Of a stretch of 64,000 nt of DNA, positions 35,301 to 52,700 are shown in pieces; the first letter of the stretch is position 1; each line of letters opens with the position of its first letter. Origin of the DNA: Bugulina stolonifera (taxonomy: Eukaryota; Bryozoa; Gymnolaemata; Cheilostomatida; Bugulidae); NCBI GenBank assembly GCA_935421135.1, contig OW285190.1:19416501-19480500 (forward strand). The letters run 5' to 3'. The position numbers and the translations under genes were made by a program. The notes below the pieces were generated by a model. The model saw only the letters and a program-made list of their open reading frames with translations. It ran no database searches and was not told the origin of the DNA.

Positions 35301-38300
35301 CCATACCATAATCATACAACAGGGGGTGATAACTTCTACTTCTGTATTATACTTATTAGTTCCCATACTGATAACACTTACCCAAAGACAGTTTATCTAC
35401 CAGTCTTATATACTCTCTGTCTGATATGTTACTCATACTCTTCTCATACTCCCCCAACACTGATCTCTGTTCTGCCAACTGTTTACTCAATCTCTGAATC
35501 TCTCTATTCATCTGGTTCACTTCTTCTAGAACCTTCTGAATGTCAGTAGCTGAGGCTCTACTCATTTTATCCTTTATATCAGATACCAGAGCAGTTTGCT
35601 GTAATAACATACACATAGACATATACAGGCACACATAGACATACTAAACATAGACATATATATACATTGTACACTTTATATTAATACAATACAATTGTAC
35701 GTACAGGTTGAGGGTGCGTGGCTATAGGCTACCTACCTCTTATCTAGTCTAAAAGGAGATAGAACACACGCTTACCTTCTTCTTCGTGGTTTCTATGACT
35801 CCCTGTTTGAATACTTTCCAACTCTCAAATCTAGCTCTATACAGTTGTATGAACTCATCGTTGTATACTTCAGTTTTATGTGTTTCTCTCTTCACACATT
35901 TACTCTCTCTGCTACATCTACAATGATATTCATAGGCTAGCATGATTTTCTCAAATATTCTATTAAAATATTCCATAAAAAGTGAAGGTTCCTTAGAGAA
36001 TGTTCACCTGTTCAAATGTGAATCAGAAAACAAATATTTAGTAATAGAAAAGTTTCAAAATAGACATTTAGCAACAACAACATGTACATGCTTATAATGC
36101 GATATATAATCCGTGCATGGTTTACGAAATTCAGTACAGTTGTACTGTACAGTCAATATAGTATTAGGTATAATATAGCTGATAACATAATATGGCTCAA
36201 CCTCTTACCTGAAGCAGAGGAATAAGTTACACAAAGTACAGTAGAGATCAATGTGTCTGCTGCACTCAGCTGATTCACACAACTCATTCTTATCTACAGA
36301 ATAACAATTGGTAGTTAGAGATCATGTATTCAGTTACCATATTCTGATTGGTGGTATTTGAATTACCAAAATAATTATACAATATATGTATAAATATCAC
36401 AAACAATAGGTCTACCTGTGAGATGATAGTTCTGCAGGGCAGCAGATAACTGTTGTATTTCATTCTGTAGATCTGACGCTAATCTACACACAGGATATGA
36501 TGTCATACGTGTCTCTGTGAGCCTGTCCTTACAGAAGGAACACACCTTACTAGGACCTTTTAGTATTGTACATGTATCTGTAAGTAACATGTGTTACACT
36601 TTACACTCACTACACTGTATATATAGTACAGTTAGTAGATAGACTAAGTTCTATTATACTCACTACACTGTATATATAGTACAGTTAGTAGATAGACTAA
36701 GTTCTATTATACTCACTACACTGTATATATAGTACAGTTAGTAGATAGACTAAGTTCTATTATACTCACTGCACTGTATATATAGTACAGTTAGTAGATA
36801 GACTAAGTTCTATTATAATCTCACTACGCTGTATATATAGTATAGTTAGTAGATAGACTAAGTTCTATTATACTCACTACACTGTATATATAGTACAGTT
36901 AGTAGATAGACTAAGTTCTATTATACTCACTACACTGTATATATAGTAGAGTTAGTAGATAGGCTAAGTTCTATTATACTCACTACACTGTATATATAGT
37001 ACAGTTAGTAGATAGACTAAGTTCTATTATACTCACTACACTGTATATATAGTACAGTTAGTAGATAGGCTAAGTTCTATTATACTAACTACACTGTATA
37101 TATAGTACAGTTAGTAGATAGACTAAGTTCTATTATACTCACTACACTGTATATATAAGTAGTATAGTCAGTGCACTTCTATACAGACACGCACTCATTG
37201 ACCCCTGTTTTCAACCAATCACAAGCCGGTATTTCCGATTTCAACCAATCACAGAAGAGCACAAAAATTTTGCACACGACCTTGCCAAGGTCACCCCAAA
37301 ATCCCCCTTCTGATTGGTCGAAAAAACATTTGCACACTTGACCCCGAACCCGGCCACGACCCCTTCCCTCCCTCCTTCCCACCCTCCTCCCCTCCCCCAC
37401 CCCCCACTCCTCCCTCCTCCCCCGCCACCGCTCTCGTCCCGTCCGCACCGCCGCCGCCACCACCACCCTCACCACCGCCACCGCCACCACCACCACCACC
37501 GCCTCCACCACCGCCGCCGCCATCACCGTCATCACCGCCACCCCTCCTCCACCGCCGCCCACCCTTTCCCCGCAACCCCCACTCACCCGAACGACCGATC
37601 GTTTGAGGCGGTCAAGCCGCGTCCGCCCACGTTGCGTGCGGCGCCGACCGTACACGTGGAGGCGACGCCAGTGCCCCGTATCCACCGGGCCAAGCGACTA
37701 GGCCGCGGCCCGCCGCCCATCCCGAGTTACACCGGGGCGGGATTGTAAAGATAAGCTGGTCTGATGGTGGTATTAATGCGAGGAAGGTTCGGTTCTATGA
37801 TATACATTGTATTGATGATAAAGGATGAATGAATAAAAGGTTGTGTGCAAGTGTTAGATTTTGCCTGCCAATAGAGTTTAGTAGGAGTAGGAGTTTAGGT
37901 ACTTATTACTCATCTTCATCAGAAGTTGTAGGAGCTATAATGTTTACGACTTCGGTCTCGGCATACTCTAATTGATAAGCTCCAGCTCCAAACTCTTGAC
38001 ACAGTCTTACCTACAAGATGATTTTAGTTTTTACTCAGACGAATATCACTCAAGGTGGTCAAAGCAAGAAATCTATCCTTCTTTATGTTGTTGGTACCTT
38101 AGCATATCCGGTGATTTGTAGAGGTGAGCTAGTTGTTGAGGGGTTTCACTTTTGTAGTTACGAACTTCAGAATCAGCTCCCAATCTTAGACATAAATGTA
38201 GACATTCGTAGCCTTCATTCTCTATGGCAATGTGAGATGGGGCGTATCCATCTCCCATTCGCTATAATATCAAACAAGGGAATTGAATTAAACTCCCCAT

Positions 38301-41300
38301 CTAACTTATCAATTCGATCTACTCTACTTTTATTTCACTGTAATGTATTCACTTACCCTCATATCTAAGTCAGCCCGAGTATTTTCTTTTAGTACCTTTA
38401 GTGCCTCTCTATGCTTGCTGCTATGCGCTGTTTCAACAATGAGGTGGACTACACTCCTTCCATCATGATTGTAGCTCTGTACATTGTCTTGGGGAAGTGA
38501 TTTGTAAGGAACTCTGAAGTATGGATGCTTTACTTCTGCTCTGGTCAAACTTGTGGTTAGAGCATGAATAACCTTAGCTCTACCCAGGCGTGCAGCAATG
38601 TGAAGGGGGGTGTCACCTTCCAAATAAACATTAGCAATATAGATAAGTACCGAATTGTTACGAGTTTTGCAACATTAAATTTTTTCACAAGCGATGCATG
38701 CAAACATTGGTGCTATAAAACACTAACCCCAAGCATCGGCTATTGCTCCATCCGCTCCCCTTGTGATGATGAGGCGAATTAGTGAATCCGAACAATAAGA
38801 CTGTACAGTTAGGTGAAGTAACGTCTGCCGATTCGCATTTTTTGTATTCAGTTGTTTGTGACTCCTCGCAACAAATACCGCGAGTGCAACGGCTCTCTCA
38901 TCTCTATCTCGGGCTGCTTCTAGAACCTCACTACATCATTTAACATGATATTTGTTTTTCACATAGTTGAGAGGAAGTTATATGAGAAATTTGCATTGAA
39001 CCACTTCAGTTTTGTCTATCATATTTTATTTTGATCATAAAAAACAATACGAAAAAAAAAAAAAAAAAAAAATAGTTGGAAGTATGTATAACTTACAACT
39101 CTTCATCCTTTCCATCTTGCTCCCAAAAGATAGAACGAATTTCTTCTAGTAACTGTGTGCTAAGCTTATTGCGAATATTGGTTACAGGATCCCATTTCTG
39201 CCAGTCTAGAGGTAAGCTTTTTTGGAGAAAGAGCTCAGATTCCCCCTCAAATAAGTCTTTATTCTCATACTCGCTTTGTTCTGTACAACTTTCCACTGTT
39301 AACTTCATCAGCTCTTGGTTTATAGGAGTCATTAGCTTGTTGCTATACTCGCTTGATCCATATCCACTTTCCATGCTATTTGTGTGCTAACCTTTAATTT
39401 TTATTAAGAACAGACTGGAGCTAGAAAGAGTTAACTAAACTATTGTTTCCATCTCTCTTTATATAGTGAATAAAAAGATACAAATAAAGCTGATTGGCTA
39501 ACAATATATACATTGGAGCGCATTGGAAACACATCGGGATAGATTGAAAACACATAGGGGAACATCGAAACACATCGGGAGAGGTCGAAAACACATCGGG
39601 AGAGGTCGAAAACACATCGGGAGAGGTCGAAAACACATCGGGGCACATCGAATCACATCGGGGGAGGTCGAAAACACATCGGGACACATCGAATCACATC
39701 GGGGGAGGTCGAAAACACATCGGGACACATCGAATCACATCGGGGGAGGTCGAAAACACATCGGGTTACATCGGGTTACATCGGGGGAGGTCGAAAACAC
39801 ATCGGGTCACATCGAATCACATCGGGGGAGGTCGAAAACACATCGGGTCACATCGAATCACATCGGGGAAGGTCGAAAACACATCGGGACACATCGAATC
39901 ACATCGGGGGAGGTCGAAAACACATCGGGTTACATCGGGGGAGGTCGAAAACACATCGGGACACATCGAATCACATCGGGGGAGGTCGAAAACACATCGG
40001 GTTACATCGGAAACACATCGGGTTACATCGGGATACATCGAATCACATCGGGATGTAATAAATCAGACTAAAAAAAGGCACATCACTTCTGATTGGACAG
40101 AGACTTCCATAAAAGCAAGCATGAGAGAGGATTTTTATCATTACCACTCAACCACCTAGTAAAGACTTGCAACTCTGTGGATATTTACTAATTTCTCTGA
40201 ATAAACATCACTCAACAACTAATATGGTGAGTAAACTTATTTTAATATGTATTTTAATATGAATTTACTCATTTGAGTTAACATTGGGACTAATTCTATT
40301 TTAGTAGTGATATAATACTCCTTTGGTATGACCAGGGCCTAGAAACTTTGTAAGCTTATATATTAAACTGTTTTGATTCTCAACATGAGAGCAAGTATGT
40401 AGATATCTGATCTGTCTATACTACAATTTGTGTGACCAGAGCTTAGAAACTTTATAAGTGGTGAGATATATTTTCAATATGAGTAGTTATATCACTAGTA
40501 GTGTAATAAGTATCAAAACAAGTTTATTACCACTTGTACTGGCTATACTAATACATCCTAGCTATTTTAATATGTATTTTAATATGAATTCACTCATTTG
40601 AGTTAACATTGGGACTAATTCTATTTTAGTAGTGATAATATTTCTCCTTTGGTATGTCCAGGGCTTAGAAACTTTGTAAGCTTATATATTAAACTGTTTT
40701 GATTCTCAACATGAAAGCATGTGTGTAGAGATCTGATCTGTCTATACTACAATCTGTGTGACCAGAGCTTAGAAACTTTATAAGTGGTGAGATATATTTT
40801 CAATATGAGTAGTTATATCACTAGTAGTGTAATAAGTATCAAAACAAGTTTATTACCACTTGTACTGGCTATACTAATACATCCTAGCTATTTTAATATG
40901 TATTTTAATATGAATTCACTCATTTGAGTTAACATTGGGACTAATTCTATTTTAGTAGTGATAATATTTCTCCTTTGGTATGTCCAGGGCTTAGAAACTT
41001 TGTAAGCTTATATATTAAACTGTTTTGATTCTCAACATGAAAGCATGTGTGTAGAGATCTGCTCTGTCTATACTACAATTAGTGTGACCATAGCTTAGAA
41101 ACTTTATAAGTGGTGAGATTTATTTTCAATATGAGTAGTTATACCACTAGTAGGGTAATAAGTATCAAAACAGTTTATTACCACTTGTACTGACTATACT
41201 TGTACATCCTAGCAAAGAAGTATATTATCAAGTGTAGCCTATACTCTACATCCAAGACTATACTGTACTAAAGTGGCCTATCACAATACTTGGGGTGGAC

Positions 41301-44300
41301 TTGCTGCTAAAAAGATTAACTGGATAATTCTAATGAATAGGTCTGCACTAAAGTGATTTATTACACTACTTGGGATGAACCTGTTGCTAAAAAGATTAAC
41401 TGAATAATTCTAATAAATAGATCTGCACTAACACAAGAGTAATTTATCTCTCTGTTTGGGAGGAGCTTACCATCAGAAAGACTCAATTGGTTAAAAAACA
41501 CATAAAAAGTAAGGGGTGGTATTTTTGGTTTTTTTTCTGTCTTATACTGATTATTCACTTCAAAATTAATTCTTGCTAACACATGTTCTGTTTATCTGTT
41601 CTTGTTTCTATTCCCCAGTGACTATGGTGAGTTGGTGGTTTTATCCACACAGTTAAGGCTTTAGTATATATTATTACTTGTTATTTTACTTGCCTATGCT
41701 ATTCATTCTAAAAGTAGTTGTTATCAGTATTCTTATTCTCTTGCTCAATAACTATAGGGATTAGTATTTTTGTATACTTGACTTGTACACTACCACTATG
41801 CTCATGTTTCCTATATATTTTTATTCATTCTTATTTTCTTTGTTTAGTAACTATGTTGCATTAGTAGTTCCGTTTACTTGACTTATGCTTTGGTATATGT
41901 TTATTACTCTACATATACTTACAGGCTTCTACATCTAAACAAGCAAGAAAGAAATATATAAGAAAAATATAAACAACAAAAAAAGGTACGAAATACATGA
42001 TAACCTACAATTCGGAGGACAAAAGAATCTCAAGGAAAAGAATCCCATCTCCAGAAATGGTTAGTCTATTATCTTATTTGTTCACACATGCACTACAACT
42101 TCCATCCACTATGCTGTTGGGTTTCTACACCTCATCACATTATTTCTAAGATGTCAAAGGAGATTACTGACATTTCTTCAGAAGAACATGTTAGTTACAC
42201 ATAGTATGATAATGTACTTTTTCATACTATAAGCCTCTTACCATGTCTAGAATGTCAAAAGAGACTACTTCCTTTTTAAAACCAGATGTTAATTAGCCAT
42301 AGTATGATTTTCTCTAATTCTATAAGTCTCTTACCATGTCTAAGATGTTAAAGATTAGTTATATTTTTATTATAAGTATTGCACTTTCTTTCTTATGTAT
42401 TATTTCTATCAATAAGACACTTTTTTTTTCTTTTCTTATGTGAAAAAATAAAACATAAATTACAACTGGTTTTCTCATGTTAATGGTATATTTCTCTTTA
42501 TGTGAGAAAATAGACAGACTTTAGTAGACTTGCTTAGTACTTAGAGTGCTAGTTTTTTCATCAAATTCCTCAAAAACCATATATTACAAATGACTATGTT
42601 AATGTAGTTTGTTAATTAGTCTCTGCACATTTTATTTACATTATAGAATGAAAAAGAAACAGAACTAGGTGAAGAAGAAATTGCTTTATTTGAGGACTGT
42701 GGGGGAGTAGATGGGATAGAGATAGGTAAGAATGATCTGCTATCTATTTGTCTATTTAGAATCTTTTTGATTTACAAGTAAGTCATATGTCCTCTCTCAC
42801 TTATTCTTGTTTTTTTTTTTTTTTTTAGGACTCAGAACAAAGCCGATGAGTAAGGGGGGTCTAAGATTCTATGTCTTTGTTAGTGATGAGGCAAAAAGAA
42901 GACTGGAGATGTCACTAGCAAAGCCATTTGAATCGGACGACCCCTGCTTTTTATGTAACAAGAATGTTGGACGTCGACGAGGCGTCCATATTCAACAACA
43001 TTTTTTGCTGAGAATCTGTTTTTGCTATCACATAACAGTAGATGATGAGGGGATGAATAGACACTACAACTTTCCATCTAATCATTGTATTGATGGAAAG
43101 CCCTGTCACCGCCACATCTCATTCAACACTCGCTTTCTAACTGATATCTACTCATTAAAAAAGACCATATCCTTTTTGCAAAGGCTCACTGGTCACTCTC
43201 CACCTTCCAAAATACTCATCCCCGCATACACTCCAACAACTGTTGGTGGGGTAGTATACCCTCCCTTCTTTAAGGGGATGTCTACTACTCCATTCTCTTT
43301 AAAGTCTGGGGTGTGCTCTTCACAATTTCCTCTCCCTTCTCACCATCATTTTAATTCAGATGCTTCTTCCATCAGTAACTCTCTTACTAATGGAGACATT
43401 ACCACCTCTACTTCTTCTCCTACAACTACTACTATTGCTACTATCATTACTACTACTCCTTCTACTACTTCTTTTCCTCCACTCTTTTCTTCACATTCAC
43501 CCTCTCATTCTCCTGAAAGATCTGATGATACAGTTACCACTGTTTCGATACCTACTTCTACTCCCACCTCTTCACCTGCTCCACTCTTTTTCTTAGATTC
43601 ACCCTCTTTTTCTCTTGAAAGATCTAATAATACAATTACTAGTCTTTCAATACCTACTCTTATTGCTACTTCTACTAGCACTACTACTACTACTTCTACT
43701 ACTATCACTTCTTCCTTTTCTTTAGCTTCACACTCTCTTTCTTTTGAAAGAGAGCTACTTAGCTTGCAGTCTCCTTCTTGTTCTTCTGAACTCAATCTTA
43801 ATACCCCCACCACTATTACCCCCATAGAAGAGGAGACTGTCAGTGAACTAGTTGATCGAAGCAGACTCCCCCAATCTTTTTTCTCTGGAGCAGTTGAGTA
43901 TTACCGCTCTGCCATTTTTCATCTCAAGAAGAATGGGTATCACAGAGAGGTAATAGCACAAGCTGAAGCTTACCTTCGAGTCAGTGAAGAAAAGCTCTAA
44001 TCATCTTTTCTTTGGTTTTTTTCTTTTTTCTCCCACTCTCTCTCTGTAGTGTCTCATTCCCTCTGCATTTACTTTTATGTGATAGCGAAGCAGTGAAGAT
44101 TTTTTTTAAATTATTTTTTAAATTATTATATAATGGTATTCTAACACTTATACACATCCTTTTATACATTCTATTGCTACTATTGTAAAAAGTTTATTTA
44201 ATGTATTATATGCGCTGACTTAACACATGCACACAGCTGTTTCTTGCTATAACAGCTATGACAAATACTCCTTTACATATGTAGCTTTTTTTTTTTTTTT

Positions 44301-47300
44301 TTAACTATTATATAATGATATTTTACATGTGTACACATTTATTCATTCTATTGCTAGTATTGTAAAGTGTATTTAATGTATTACATAATGCTGACTTAAC
44401 ACATACACACAACCTTTTATTTATTCTATTGCTACTATTGTGAAAAGTTTATCTAATGTATAATATACGCTGTCTTAACACATGCACACAGACTTTCTTG
44501 CTAATAATTGCTATGTCATACTCCTTTAAATATGTGTCTTTTATTCTTTCAATTGTGTTTTAACATGTGTACACAATCTTTTATTTATTCTATTGCTACT
44601 ATTGTGAAAAGTTTATCTAATGTACTACATAAAGCTGGCTTAAGACATACACACAACCTTTCATCTATTCTATTGTCACCATTGTGAAAAGTTTATTTAA
44701 TGTATATCATAGAACCAACCCTTCTTCCCATCAGTATATTTATAGCCAATACTTTACACGTTTCTTTATTAATGATGCAATGCACATCATAAACCAAGCC
44801 TTCCCATTGTCAATACAATGTATATCATAGAACCGAACCTTCCTCGCATTAATACCACCATCAGACCAGCTTATCTTTACAATCCCGCCCCGGTGTAACT
44901 CGGGATGGGCGGCGGGCCGCGGCCTAGTCGCTTGGCCCGGTGGATACGGGGCACTGGCGTCGCCTCCACGTGTACGGTCGGCGCCGCACGCAACGTGGGC
45001 GGACGCGGCTTGACCGCCTCAAACGATCGGTCGTTCGGGTGAGTGGGGGTTGCGGGGGGAGGGTGGGCGGCGGTGGAGGAGGGGTGGCGGTGATGACGGT
45101 GATGGCGGCGGTGGTGGTGGTGGTGAGGGTGGTGGTGGCGGCGGCAGCGGCGGTGCGGACGGGACGAGGGCGGTGGCGGGGGACTAAGTTCTATTATACT
45201 CACTACACTGTATATATAGTATAGTTAGTAGATAGACTAAGTTCTATTATACTCACTGCACTGTATATATAGTACAGTTAGTAGATAGGCTAAGTTCTAT
45301 TATACTAACTACACTGTATATATAGTATAGTTAGTAGATAGACTAAGTTCTATTATACTCACTACACTGTATATATAGTACAGTTAGTAGATAGACTAAG
45401 TTCTATTATACTCACTACACTGTATATATAGTATAGTTAGTAGATAGACTAAGTTCTATTATACTCACTACACTGTATATGTAGTATAGTTAGTAGATAG
45501 ACTAAGTTCTATTATACTCACTACACTGTATATAAAGTATAGTTAGTAGATAGACTAAGTTCTATTATACTCACTACACTGTATATATAGTATAGTTAGT
45601 AGATAGGCTAAGTTCTATTATACTCACTACACTGTATATATAGTATAGTTAGTAGATAGACTAAGTTCTATTATACTCACTACACTGTATATATAGTATA
45701 GTTAGTAGATAGACTAAGTTCTATTATACTCACTACACTGTATATATAGTACAGTTAGTAGATAGACTAAGTTCTATTATACTCACTACACTGTATATAT
45801 AGTATAGTTAGTAGATAGACTAAGTTCTATTATACTCACTACACTGTATATATAGTATAGTTAGTAGATAGACTAAGTTCTATTATACTCACTACACTGT
45901 ATATAGTACAGTTAGTAGATAGACTAAGTTCTATTATACTCACTACACTGTATATAGTACAGTTAGTAGATAGACTAAGTTCTATTATACTCACTACACT
46001 GTATATATAGTATAGTTAGTAGATAGACTAAGTTCTATTATACTCACTACACTGTATATGTAGTATAGTTAGTAGATAGACTAAGTTCTATTATACTCAC
46101 TACACTGTATATGTAGTATAGTTAGTAGATAGACTAAGTTCTATTATAATCTCACTACACTGTATATATAGTACAGTTAGTAGATAGACTAAGTTCTATT
46201 ATACTCACTACACTGTATATGTAGTATAGTTAGTAGATAGACTAAGTTCTATTATACTCACTACACTGTATATATAGTATAGTTAGTAGATAGACTAAGT
46301 TCTATTATCCTCACTACACTGTATATATAGTACAGTTAGTAGATAGACTAAGTTCTACTATACTCACTACACTGTATATATAGTATAGTTAGTAGATAGA
46401 CTAAGTTCTATTATAATACATTCAATAACTTACCCAGACACTCTCCACACATCATGTGTTGACACGGCAGCATACGTAACTTTCTCACATTTGTACAGAT
46501 ACCACACTCTATTGTCAGCTGAAAAGCCTCCTCTACCAAATTGGCAGCTGATGCCATATTGTTCTACAAACATAATATTATATAAAGATGAAGTACAGGC
46601 TGTACTGCTCCCTCCCCATCGTTATATACTTGAAGGTAGCTGTGCTACAAGCCATATCAGAATGCTAGGTATATGTATAGTGGACCAGGCACCAGTTCTA
46701 CAAGTATATTATACTCAGATATAGTCTAGGTTCTAGAATATGATTAGATTCATTTTTATCTGGAATTAGGCAGATGAGATATGAAGGGGGTGCATTGTTA
46801 CTAGATATCTACTGACAGTGCATTGTCATCATCATATCAAAGATGATGGATACAGATTCCATAGCTTATCTACAGTTGATGGTACATTGTACATAGAGGT
46901 ACATTGTAGGATATATTAGTGAGATGTTAATCATAATACAGAAATGTACAATAAATAATACTATATAAATTTTATTTACTTTACATCTTCATCAAACTTA
47001 GTAAGATTATGAGAACTCTAAAGTCATAAGATTGTGGAGGGATTTAGATTGAAATATTCCTGAAGAACTAAATTAGTGGAGCAGATATTCAGGTCATTAT
47101 ACACTATACAAAACAGAAATACATGAATACAATCATGTCTGTCGTCTAACTATGTAACTATATTATAGTATCTGTATAGGCTGTATGTTATTAAATGGGT
47201 AGAAGATACAGGACACTGTGCCATGTATGGACAGCAGGAATATACAAATATATTTTACTACAGCTGAAGAAACGAAGTAGAAGACATGACATGCTACAAG

Positions 47301-49762: not shown

Positions 49763-52700
49763 TTACACAGATGTGAGGGGCTCCACACCCAACAGTAGGA
49801 GACCATTAGATAGTGTCAGCCTAGCACAGTGAAACATGTACAGTCTGCACTCAGCTACAGTCAACACCTCATCCTTTACAGTCAACTTCTTAAACGCAGC
49901 ATTAGACAGATGACTAGAAATATAATAATATACCTACATGTATATGAGTATATATTTCAGCACAGTACCTACATGTATATGAGTATATATTTCAGTACAG
50001 TAGCAGATGTAATATCTTGCAGGCTTACCAAGGCTCTGGGTTCTGTAAGAAACTCATATTTTAAACTGAACTTTGGTACCCCACCCAAACTGGACACTCC
50101 CACTCAAACTGGACACTCGCACCCCACCCAAACTGGACACTCCCACCCCACCCCAACCCAAATGCCGAGTGGCCCTGATCTTTATTACCAGAAAAACTTG
50201 GCAACAATCTGCCTTATTTAACAATATAAAATGTTTCAGGACTGAGAGTTACTAGAAAACATTCTCCAAGATAATAAATAATATTACACAGACAAAGTAT
50301 TACCATAACCAGTGTACAGTACAGCTACAGCTATAACCATGACAATCAGTGTACAGTACAACTACAGCTATAACCAGGATGCCAGAATTAGAATAGAATT
50401 GTACAAATATAACTGTAGACTTACCACAAATCAAATAAGTATCGTAAGAGGATGTGTGACTCCATTTGTAATATGGATTTTCTGACTGCTTCGTCATATC
50501 TGTACGGTTAGAGAAAACATTGGTGTAAGTACTACTATTACACACACTATATATCTAGTATATCATGTACTGTTATATGTATAACCCTGTATATACATAG
50601 TTGGTGTAGTTGGTGGACATGCAGCGACACAAATCATCTGTACATTATTACATCTATCAAAGTATTTACATGTATATTCTAATCCCATCTTTATGGTAAG
50701 TATAGCATGAGTAAATTTCTGCATTCCATTAAATAATACATGTAGGTCGATGAAGTGTGAACACTTTATAGACTATTACGTATTTAGACTTGCCAACTAG
50801 TTGTTACATGCTGGTCACTTACTACATTTATATAATGGTCTGCATACTAGATATATAGTAAAGTGGAGGACGTACCTAGCTAAGTGTGTAATCAGTCTAA
50901 TAGCCTCAGTCTCCACCAGATGCTTCAAATCAGGGGACGGGTTCAGCTCCAGCCCACAGTTTTTCTCCAAGCTAAATCAAAAGATGCAAATAACATCATA
51001 TCCATGATAAAAGTAGATGCATGTACTTGTAGGATCTAACAAACTAGATGGTAGCATAAAAGATGGTGAAGATGAACAAAGGATTACAAGATGTAGATAT
51101 AATGTACAAATTCTATCATCTACATGTCTTATACTCTATATCTACACTTACCTACACAACCTAGAGTGGGTTATCTGTAAAAATGGCCCAGTATCAGCCC
51201 CTAGACTGAGGACCTTCTCCCAGTCAAATGTATAATCTTTAAGTCTAGATAGCCTTAGGTCATATACTATAACAGCACTACTACTGAGACTCTCTGCCAC
51301 CTCACCCAATTTATCACCAGTGGCTCTTGTTGCTACAATAGAGAAACTGGTCTATATAGTGAATAACAGCAATGTTGAACATCATACTATGCATTCATAC
51401 GTAGGTCTACATGTGATGTAGTGTACAGACCTAGAATACTTATACTGGATTGAACTATTAACAAATCTATTATATTATAAGTTGATACTGGGAGGATCCC
51501 ACACCAAATATACAATCAGCAACTCTCCCTGCCTGTCTACTCATGATAACAAGGTGTCACTAGTATTGGCACATAGGAGTTGTCTTCCCTTCAATTGAGC
51601 ATGAGTTGTGTTATAGGCCACACATAAAGTAGACAATAATACAATCATAGTAAAAGATACATTATAAAATATTACATAAGGGGAATTGTCTTCCCTTCAA
51701 ATAAGCATGATTTTTATTCTTCATTATTATTCCTAGGCATGACTTATATTCCACTGTAGACTGGATAACAGTTGACATGAATGAGCAGTCCTAGAAAGAG
51801 TTGCCTTGATTGCTGACGTCTTACGTGTCAAGGTTTACTTACTGTGTGTATTCCTCATCTTCTCTATCATTCTATGTTTAGCTTCATCTAGAATATCAGC
51901 CAATAAGACGGAAGTTCCTTTACGAGTACTCATCCCATGAACTCTACCGAATTTAACATGCTGTATCCTACAAATAAAAGTGGAATAATCTTGATGTTGT
52001 GTCTTCGGACCTAGATTTTAGGTACATGCCAATTTGCTCAAGACTGGTCCACTTCCGTCAGGGCCAAAAGCAAAATCCTCATTTGCGTGCGAGAAACCTG
52101 GGTGTGTCAATGAGCTAGGGATAGTTTCCTCCGACCAAGCAAGATCCCTGGTCATTATTCTTTTCGGTCTAGCTCGACTGGCCATCTTAGGAATTTCATT
52201 TGTGACCTAGGCCGGTCAAAGAGGTCGCAAAAACACCAACAGTTCCTGGTCTTAACATATTGTCCAAGTCTCAGTGAATTTCATATCACAAGAAGTTAGC
52301 TCCAGGAAAACTTGCAAATGATATACAACACCTGAGACTGTGACAGCTCAACACGAATATATCAAATACAGAATAACCTGCCTGCTACAGATAATTATTT
52401 AGTGTAGAGTTCACTTGTTAGATTCGAGAGTACTCACAGAGCATAGAATCATAGAATTCATATTTTAATTGAAGAACAAGTTACATTCAATTTCACTGAA
52501 TGACTTTTGGCATCTTCAAACTATTTTAACTCACTGAGTGATATTGAGAACTTCACCACAGTCATGACTATTATCAGTTTCAGTTGGAAGAATTAATTTG
52601 AATCTTTGAGGAGAGGAATTAGTAGTATACAATACTTACAGAGAGGAGGCTGTAGCAGCAGGGGTAGTATCCCTCATTAGATGCAAATCATCCACGATAT

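What the first reader, a model, noticed from the sequence alone, without database searches (positions are those of the whole stretch)
37176..45182. Inverted-repeat-bounded 8-kb insert carrying an I-kappa-B-like gene and an orphan gene
A minisatellite is interrupted by 8 kb flanked by nearly identical 370-400 bp GC-rich inverted arms, with subterminal repeats and two intron-containing divergent genes. It sits in intron 2 of a TRIM-like gene. No transposase is visible, so it is either a large non-autonomous element that captured genes, a new family whose enzyme is the orphan protein, or a segment moved by recombination.
Basis: partly seen in the sequence, partly recalled or inferred. Interest (0 to 1): 0.8.

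Follow-up and report, generated by a model that had tools for sequence, protein, structure and literature searches.

The report
Accessory element of a three-part Maverick
The 8-kb insert is one of more than a hundred near-identical virus-like mobile elements in this genome; it carries an immune-inhibitor-like gene but no machinery of its own, and seems to depend on two abundant partner elements that together hold genes typical of a Maverick DNA virus.

Summary
The insert is real. It is a mobile element (type A; window 37158-45183) with a ~658-bp left terminal inverted repeat (TIR) and a truncated right one; about 155 copies are indicated. All 8 type A copies with both flanks held have a perfect 6-bp target duplication, and ends begin AGTAGTATAG, a Maverick/Polinton signature. 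A has no integrase, polymerase or capsid gene; it carries a spliced ankyrin-repeat (IkB-like) gene and an orphan. Two partner families exist. Type B (~200 candidates; [quoted passage not shown] Type P (~280 candidates, 9.3-9.9 kb) carries a family-B polymerase (PolB) in the loci that could be checked. In 45 TIRs, A and B are not separable. The one P end read matches A/B in 30 of its first 33 bases, and A, B and P carry a CATCGG array scarcely present in host DNA or other Maverick pieces examined. Best reading: A is mobilised in trans by B's and P's enzymes. Bold reading: a segmented, tripartite Maverick whose third segment carries a candidate NF-kappaB inhibitor. Movement, particles, co-packaging and NF-kappaB inhibition are not shown.

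The parts
37158..45183 (.). Type A element (right end truncated)
   Evidence: Left terminus AGTAGTATAG at 37158, the same terminus as copies with 6-bp target duplications; right arm ends in GC-rich repeat at ~45183
37158..37815 (+). Left terminal inverted repeat, ~658 bp, GC-rich triplet core
   Evidence: 40 places scored of 821 candidates
44810..45183 (-). Right terminal inverted repeat, outer ~260-310 bp missing
37906..39374 (-). Ankyrin-repeat, IkB-like gene, five proposed exons (codons 39099-39374, 38729-38929, 38357-38614, 38100-38261, 37906-38004)
   Evidence: Open exon pieces and splice-like sites read; Pfam Ank in exon 3; exon 3 in 150 scored places of 179 candidates, a stop in 2 of 150
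39526..40022 (.). CATCGG-type minisatellite also found in types B, C, D and P
   Evidence: TRF; motif counts
40238..41213 (.). Three 326-bp tandem copies upstream of the orphan main exon
   Evidence: TRF
42831..44000 (+). Main exon of the orphan gene: Cys/His-rich N-terminal part, Ser/Thr-rich middle, C-terminal part
   Evidence: Open frame; no Pfam hit; no homologue at E<=0.001 among 7985 scored candidates
44102..44705 (.). Right subterminal ~80-bp repeats, also in L011 and L027/L028
36601..37157 (.). Left part of the host 53-bp minisatellite, the target
45182..46415 (.). Right part of the host 53-bp minisatellite

Best explanation
The insert is a non-autonomous Maverick/Polinton-type element (type A). 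It moves in trans, using the integrase and probably the capsid, packaging ATPase and protease of type B elements, and is copied by the family-B polymerase of type P elements, which would recognise the shared AGTAGTATAGTCAGTGCA terminus. Its contribution is a spliced ankyrin (IkB-like) gene, most likely captured from a cellular genome, which would damp host NF-kappaB signalling, plus an orphan Cys/His-rich protein. Shown: copies, TIRs and target duplications of A and B, gene contents of A and B, sharing of TIR variants between A and B, PolB at a fixed place in the P loci that could be checked. Inferred: trans-mobilisation, protein priming, packaging, immune damping.
For: A copy number: 153 first-look candidates for the orphan exon, 156 and 160 for two IkB stretches. 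Target duplications: 12 of 13 two-ended elements perfect 6 bp (A 8 of 8, B 3 of 4, gene-poor 1 of 1). (AGT)2 ends and 6-bp duplications are given for vertebrate Mavericks in PMC8097293 (passages). B genes: Pox_A32 1.3e-6, rve 2e-11, Chromo 1.2e-6; capsid model pLDDT 82.5 with Foldseek hits to PBCV-1, Sputnik and mavirus capsids. Seven B products are 33-49% identical to those of a 17.3-kb PolB-bearing Maverick in the same genome. TIRs: nearest neighbour of the other type in 24 of 45, against 22.8 (sd 4.2) for shuffled labels; shared variants. P: a PolB Pfam hit inside a 9.88-kb TIR pair; PolB at a consistent offset in 7 further loci; terminus 30 of 33 identical. CATCGG array in A, B, C, D and P against 5 motifs in 54 kb of host. 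pN/pS between A subfamilies 0.33 (IkB) and 0.32 (orphan N domain), Fisher P 0.007 and 0.008.
Against: A, B and P are not shown to move or replicate together. P and A/B TIRs align only over the first 33 bases, in the one P end read. P target duplications were not read. The Pfam PolB hit in P is weak (24.3 bits, 26.1 with its neighbours, cut-off 25.8). Other PolB-bearing lineages exist (rows at 81%, 48-50% and 40% identity), so P is not the only possible polymerase source. One of 13 pairs (L018/L019) has no duplication. Pooled over all A pieces, pN/pS is 0.71 for IkB exon 1 and 1.19 for exon 4; among 9 A1 copies the orphan exon has 1.39; the orphan C-terminus between subfamilies has 2.53 on about two changes. 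Single copies are damaged: IkB stops in L020 and L025, an indel in L009; orphan indels in L009, L010, L021 and an extra stop in L009 and L013. The protease is weak (0.14). IkB identity rests on ankyrin repeats. Many TIRs were first chosen by TIR similarity.
Confidence: 0.7

Rival explanations
1. A is a pure parasite (satellite) of B and P: it kept their ends, and its two genes are passengers without function.
For: No enzyme of its own; gene-poor derivatives with the same ends exist (L011, L027/L028); pooled pN/pS near or above 1 for some exons and several damaged copies.
Against: Between subfamilies synonymous changes per site exceed non-synonymous in IkB and the orphan N domain; 2 of 150 scored IkB exon 3 places carry a stop, though recency alone could explain that; both genes are kept in both subfamilies (two A2 copies).
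Confidence: 0.3
2. B and P are independent mobile families; the shared end motif reflects common Maverick descent and P does not serve A or B.
For: TIR similarity between P and A/B stops after 33 bases; the 17-kb Maverick also starts AGTAGTAT at both ends; other PolB-bearing lineages are present.
Against: Bases 12-33 are largely shared by A, B and the P end read but not by the 17-kb Maverick; CATCGG arrays occur in A, B and P but hardly in the Maverick pieces; one B copy and P share 1,045 alignment columns at 87.7%, part of it the array; no integrase, ATPase or capsid match was found in the 6 kb of P held, and no polymerase frame in B.
Confidence: 0.3
3. Segmental duplication or a recombination-mediated insertion into the minisatellite.
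For: The window copy sits in a minisatellite and has a damaged right end.
Against: Forty scored places with one fixed end and 6-bp duplications in 12 of 13 two-ended elements.
Confidence: 0.01

Closest known systems
Maverick/Polinton elements (vertebrate Mavericks, PMC8097293, passages read)
   Same: 6-bp target duplications, (AGT)2 end motif, long TIRs; B has the order integrase - ORF7 - ORF8 - capsid - protease-like, matching int - minor capsid - PW - major capsid - protease (ORF7 and ORF8 by position and by likeness to the 17-kb Maverick)
   Different: Genes are divided over separate TIR-bearing elements of about 7-10 kb; A has none of the core genes
Polinton-like viruses, including Tlr1 (PMC11071308, passages read)
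   Same: Relatives without pPolB are known; Tlr1 keeps the retroviral-type integrase
   Different: Those encode other replication proteins on the same genome; none was recognised in B
Bidnaviridae (PMC4061559, passages read)
   Same: Two linear segments with conserved termini and polintovirus-derived PolB; the second segment is thought to have arisen by gene replacement; genes include a potential antiviral-defence modulator
   Different: Single-stranded DNA, parvovirus-derived capsid, not integrated proviruses; here the capsid is double jelly-roll and an integrase is present
Transpovirons with virophage and giant virus (PMC7031253, passages read)
   Same: DNA of about 7.6 kb with 380-520-nt TIRs that depends on partners for spread
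   Different: Associated with viruses of amoebae; here the elements are integrated in a nuclear genome in many copies
Polydnavirus vankyrins (PMC3757122, passages read)
   Same: IkB-like ankyrin proteins on segmented virus-derived DNA that block NF-kappaB
   Different: Vankyrins lack the regulatory termini; here the gene is spliced and has an N-terminal exon ahead of the repeats, and the carrier is Maverick-like

Membership tests
Maverick/Polinton (type A, the window element) | 6-bp target duplication | tested here: met
   8 of 8 A1 copies with both flanks held; not readable in the window copy
Maverick/Polinton (type A, the window element) | Long TIR with (AGT)2 end motif | tested here: met
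   ~658-bp TIR starting AGTAGTATAG
Maverick/Polinton (type A, the window element) | Encodes PolB, integrase, ATPase, capsid, protease | tested here: not met
   Only the ankyrin gene and the orphan found
Maverick/Polinton (type B) | Retroviral-type integrase and A32-type ATPase | tested here: met
Maverick/Polinton (type B) | Double jelly-roll major capsid protein | tested here: met
   Model and fold searches
Maverick/Polinton (type B) | Adenovirus-type protease | tested here: inconclusive
   Pfam Peptidase_C5 E 0.14, PDB S273R E 0.14; 39% over 123 aa to a product of the 17-kb Maverick
Maverick/Polinton (type B) | Protein-primed PolB | tested here: not met
   No polymerase-sized frame in the B copies read; none of the 11 Pfam PolB matches lies in a B locus held here
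Maverick/Polinton (type P) | PolB between Maverick-like TIRs | tested here: met
   One TIR pair with a weak Pfam hit and 7 loci with PolB at a consistent offset; the PolB DNA of P itself was not fetched
Maverick/Polinton (type P) | 6-bp target duplication | not tested
Multipartite virus | Complementary genes on segments with common termini | tested here: met
   between P and A/B the common part is about 33 bases
Multipartite virus | Segments packaged and transmitted together | not testable with these tools
   No particle or expression data
IkB | Ankyrin repeat domain | tested here: met
   Pfam Ank 25.8 bits against cut-off 21.1 in exon 3; exon 4 below cut-off
IkB | N-terminal DSGxxS-type degron | tested here: inconclusive
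   Exon 1 begins MESGYGSS; the consensus is recalled and no call tested it

The most novel reading that the evidence does not exclude
A segmented (tripartite) Maverick DNA virus resident in this genome: segment B carries integration and virion genes, segment P the polymerase, segment A a candidate NF-kappaB antagonist plus an orphan. Each is a TIR-bounded provirus of about 7-10 kb in roughly 150-280 copies, held together by a common ~33-base terminus and a CATCGG array that could be a packaging signal.
Probability: 0.4. Interest if true: 0.93.

Novelty: new variant of a known kind. Interest (0 to 1): 0.86.

Why it matters
Mavericks are described as single genomes carrying polymerase, integrase and capsid genes together. 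Here much the same gene set appears split over two similar-sized, abundant elements, with a third that carries an immune-inhibitor-like gene. If the parts work together, this is a natural route from a one-piece to a multi-piece integrating DNA virus, preserved in hundreds of recent copies in one genome, and it makes ideas about multipartite genomes, satellites and gene capture testable. In nine full-text searches of the held library none of the listed titles or abstract openings reported a divided Maverick; I saw listings only, capped at 7-20 rows, and most subscription papers are not in that library.

Tried and rejected
Rejected: (1) the orphan as the enzyme of the family: no Pfam hit, no homologue, fold model useless (pLDDT 32). 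(2) A lone captured segment: many copies. (3) L027/L028 (about 16.7 kb between TIRs) as the polymerase segment: no polymerase-sized frame in the lists. (4) The C1:22080281 Maverick as a carrier of A/B TIRs: ends share only 8-11 bases. For the C1:4277000 / C2:16257500 / C1:12828897 lineage no A/B-like DNA was found in the pieces held, but its ends were not reached. Led nowhere: viral contig scans, Rfam on the window, ORF1 homologues, phage collection (weak partial matches). The host organism was not identified; that it is an animal is a guess.
Full report
OBSERVATION. The inverted arms are real (349 nt, 97% complementary) and interrupt a 53-bp minisatellite. Searching the genome (235 Mb, 27 contigs, unnamed) with the outer 401 bases of the left arm gave 821 first-look candidates; 40 were scored, the rows covering all 401 bases at 92-100% identity. 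The inner arm gave 722 candidates, 40 scored. The true left end is 37158; the arm is about 658 bp. The window's right arm stops in its GC-rich core, so this copy is damaged.

IT IS MOBILE. Of 13 elements with both flanks held, 12 have perfect 6-bp target duplications and 1 (L018/L019, type B) has none. By type: A 8 of 8, B 3 of 4, gene-poor 1 of 1. Left out because a flank or end was cut or missing: window, L016, L027/L028, L029, L030, the nested copy in L022/L023, and the single-ended pieces L031-L050. AGT repeated twice at the end and a 6-bp duplication are given for vertebrate Mavericks in PMC8097293 (passages).

CONTENT OF TYPE A. A spliced ankyrin gene on the minus strand (five proposed exons; Pfam Ank) and an orphan with a Cys/His-rich N-terminal part on the plus strand. 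A1 copies (window type) with both ends span 7.3-8.8 kb, except L020/L021 (13.6 kb, with an inserted stretch; coordinates). A second subfamily, A2, was read in two copies (L029, L030), both with both genes. IkB exon 3 as protein: 179 candidates, 150 scored, 2 with a stop; 137 of the 150 rows are 98-100% identical over the matched part, so the spread is recent. Between A1 (9-10 copies) and A2 (1-2 copies), pN/pS is 0.33 for IkB and 0.32 for the orphan N domain; Fisher P 0.007, 0.008 and 0.00017 together, on rounded averaged counts that treat the groups as one comparison. Against this: pooled over all A pieces, IkB exons range from 0.03 to 1.19, and among 9 A1 copies the orphan exon has 1.39; the orphan C-terminus has 2.53 on about two changes. 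Pieces below the coverage limits (90%, 70%) were dropped. Several copies carry stops or indels. That the ankyrin protein inhibits NF-kappaB is inference.

TYPE B. Other elements with the same TIRs carry about ten adjacent open frames: ATPase (Pox_A32 1.3e-6), integrase (rve 2e-11, chromodomain 1.2e-6), a weak C5 protease (0.14), and a 461-aa protein with 23 database relatives, one 99% identical and the rest 22-51%. Its model (pLDDT 82.5) matches double jelly-roll capsid proteins (PBCV-1 E 1.3e-17, Sputnik 9.5e-15, mavirus 2.0e-14; adomavirus and one adintovirus entry). Three copies span 9.2-9.8 kb (L012, L016, L017; L012 lacks part of ORF7/ORF8); L018/L019 spans 12.0 kb and L022-L024 20.1 kb through inserted DNA. 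First-look candidates: 201 for the capsid stretch, 200 for ORF1. pN/pS among 6 copies: capsid 0.17, ORF7 0.19, integrase 0.21, ORF8 0.26, ORF4 0.28, ORF1 0.51, ORF2 0.66, ATPase 0.71, ORF10 0.80, ORF5 0.97; single stops occur in L012, L016, L017 and L018 (whether each is a real break was not examined). No polymerase-sized frame is present.

A AND B SHARE TERMINI. Linked TIR variants occur on both types: one set on A1 copies L009, L014, L015, L025 and B copies L012, L018/L019 and the left end of L022 (its right end, L024, differs at one site); a second on A1 L020/L021, L026 and B L016, L017, L041, L048; a third on A2 copies L029, L031, L033, L034, L035 and B copies L023, L043, L046, L047, L049, L050. 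The window, L010 and L013 have further variants seen only on A1, and other A2 copies differ at single sites. On full TIRs (47 extracted; 45 used, 2 gene-poor left out; 19 A and 15 B elements) the nearest neighbour outside the own element is of the other type in 24 of 45 cases; shuffled labels give 22.8 (sd 4.2). For TIRs of copies chosen by their inside (L029-L050) it is 11 of 19, counted by hand. Matches of 100 bp or more between the inside of A and the type B loci lie only in the minisatellite, so the sharing suggests repeated exchange of ends.

TYPE P. The Pfam PolB model has 11 matches (14 candidates, all scored; 0 of 14 control genomes). One, weak (24.3 bits, 26.1 with neighbours, cut-off 25.8), lies in an element at C10:9726101-9735977 whose left end matches A/B in 30 of the first 33 bases. 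Its TIR has 678 candidates, 40 scored; a stretch near its right end has 278, 40 scored. Nine TIR pairs among the listed rows span 9.31-9.88 kb and 8 of 9 hold that stretch. A PolB query (302 aa) from the 17-kb Maverick gave 817 candidates, 130 scored. I compared 67 of those places with the listed P marks: 9 lie nearby, and 7 sit at mutually consistent offsets (6.44-6.59 kb from the right-end stretch, 1.43-1.45 kb from the left TIR, or 7.67 kb before the right TIR), with frames of 478-1531 aa; the other 2 do not fit. All 7 are among the 48 places with frames of 394 aa or more, none among the 19 with 251-283 aa. The P marks listed are 40 of 678 and 40 of 278, so low overlap is expected. Queries for five A/B proteins gave no match in the 6 kb of P held. 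About 5 kb of that P copy was not read; PolB would fill 3.8-4.6 kb of it, leaving little room for a capsid/integrase module.

COMMON ORIGIN. A 17.3-kb Maverick in the same genome (C1:22072416-22089691, duplication GCAGTG on both sides) has PolB together with integrase, capsid, ATPase and protease-like products. These are 40% (integrase), 33% (capsid), 37% (ATPase, partial), 35% (ORF7), 45% (ORF4), 49% (ORF8) and 39% (protease-like, partial) identical to B. Its PolB is 49-51% identical to the class that includes P over about 185 residues. B and P thus look like two halves of such a genome; other PolB lineages in the same search (81%, 48-50%, 40%) mean that P is not the only possible source. CATCGG motifs number 28-61 in the inside sequences of A, B, C, D and P examined, except the left piece of one B copy (L018, 1; its right piece L019 has 60); 5 in 54 kb of host; 1, 0 and 0 in three pieces (11.7 kb) of the 17-kb Maverick and 3 in 10 kb of another. 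One B copy and P share 1,045 alignment columns at 87.7%, part of it array.

MECHANISM (inferred). Terminal AGTAGT is the kind of short repeat used in jumping-back initiation by protein-primed polymerases (recalled from adenovirus, no call). P polymerase would copy A, B and P from their common ends; B integrase would join them with a 6-bp stagger; B capsid may carry them; A's ankyrin protein would restrain the host response.

KNOWN RELATIVES. Polinton-like viruses mostly lack pPolB and retroviral-type integrase and use other replication proteins; Tlr1 keeps the integrase (PMC11071308, passages). So loss of PolB has precedent; a PolB kept on a separate, equally abundant element with related ends was not seen in the listings or passages I read.

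LIMITS. Copy numbers are first-look candidates. The organism is unknown. P target duplications and the PolB DNA of P were not read. Particles, transcription and movement are untested.

Noticed in passing
L020/L021 (C10:6897000-6912000): A type A copy is interrupted by a stretch with a 1474-aa open frame, possibly a retroelement.
   Followed up: no
L022-L024 (C9:4818000-4840000): A B element appears nested in ORF1 of another B element; its left TIR is cut in the GC-rich core, like the window's right arm.
   Followed up: partly
L061:182-1031: The CATCGG array in P is a near-perfect palindrome of two 422-nt arms (98% complementary).
   Followed up: no
L060:2188-2201: A second copy of the terminal motif AGTAGTATAGTCAG lies on the minus strand, its end 57 bp beyond the part of the P TIR matched on the other side; unexplained.
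   Followed up: partly
G000: Many PolB matches with frames of only 251-283 aa and nearly identical scores form a second abundant PolB class not tied to P marks.
   Followed up: no
L027/L028 (C9:3771200-3788000) and L011: Gene-poor derivatives with type A right subterminal repeats, one about 16.7 kb long with unrelated DNA inside.
   Followed up: partly
window 51148-52017 (-): Pieces of an arginyl-tRNA synthetase-like gene (tRNA-synt_1d 2.3e-7 and 0.0017).
   Followed up: no
C4:3668345-3679270: A P element probably ends about 0.5 kb (estimated) before a type A copy (L015); possible clustering of insertions.
   Followed up: no
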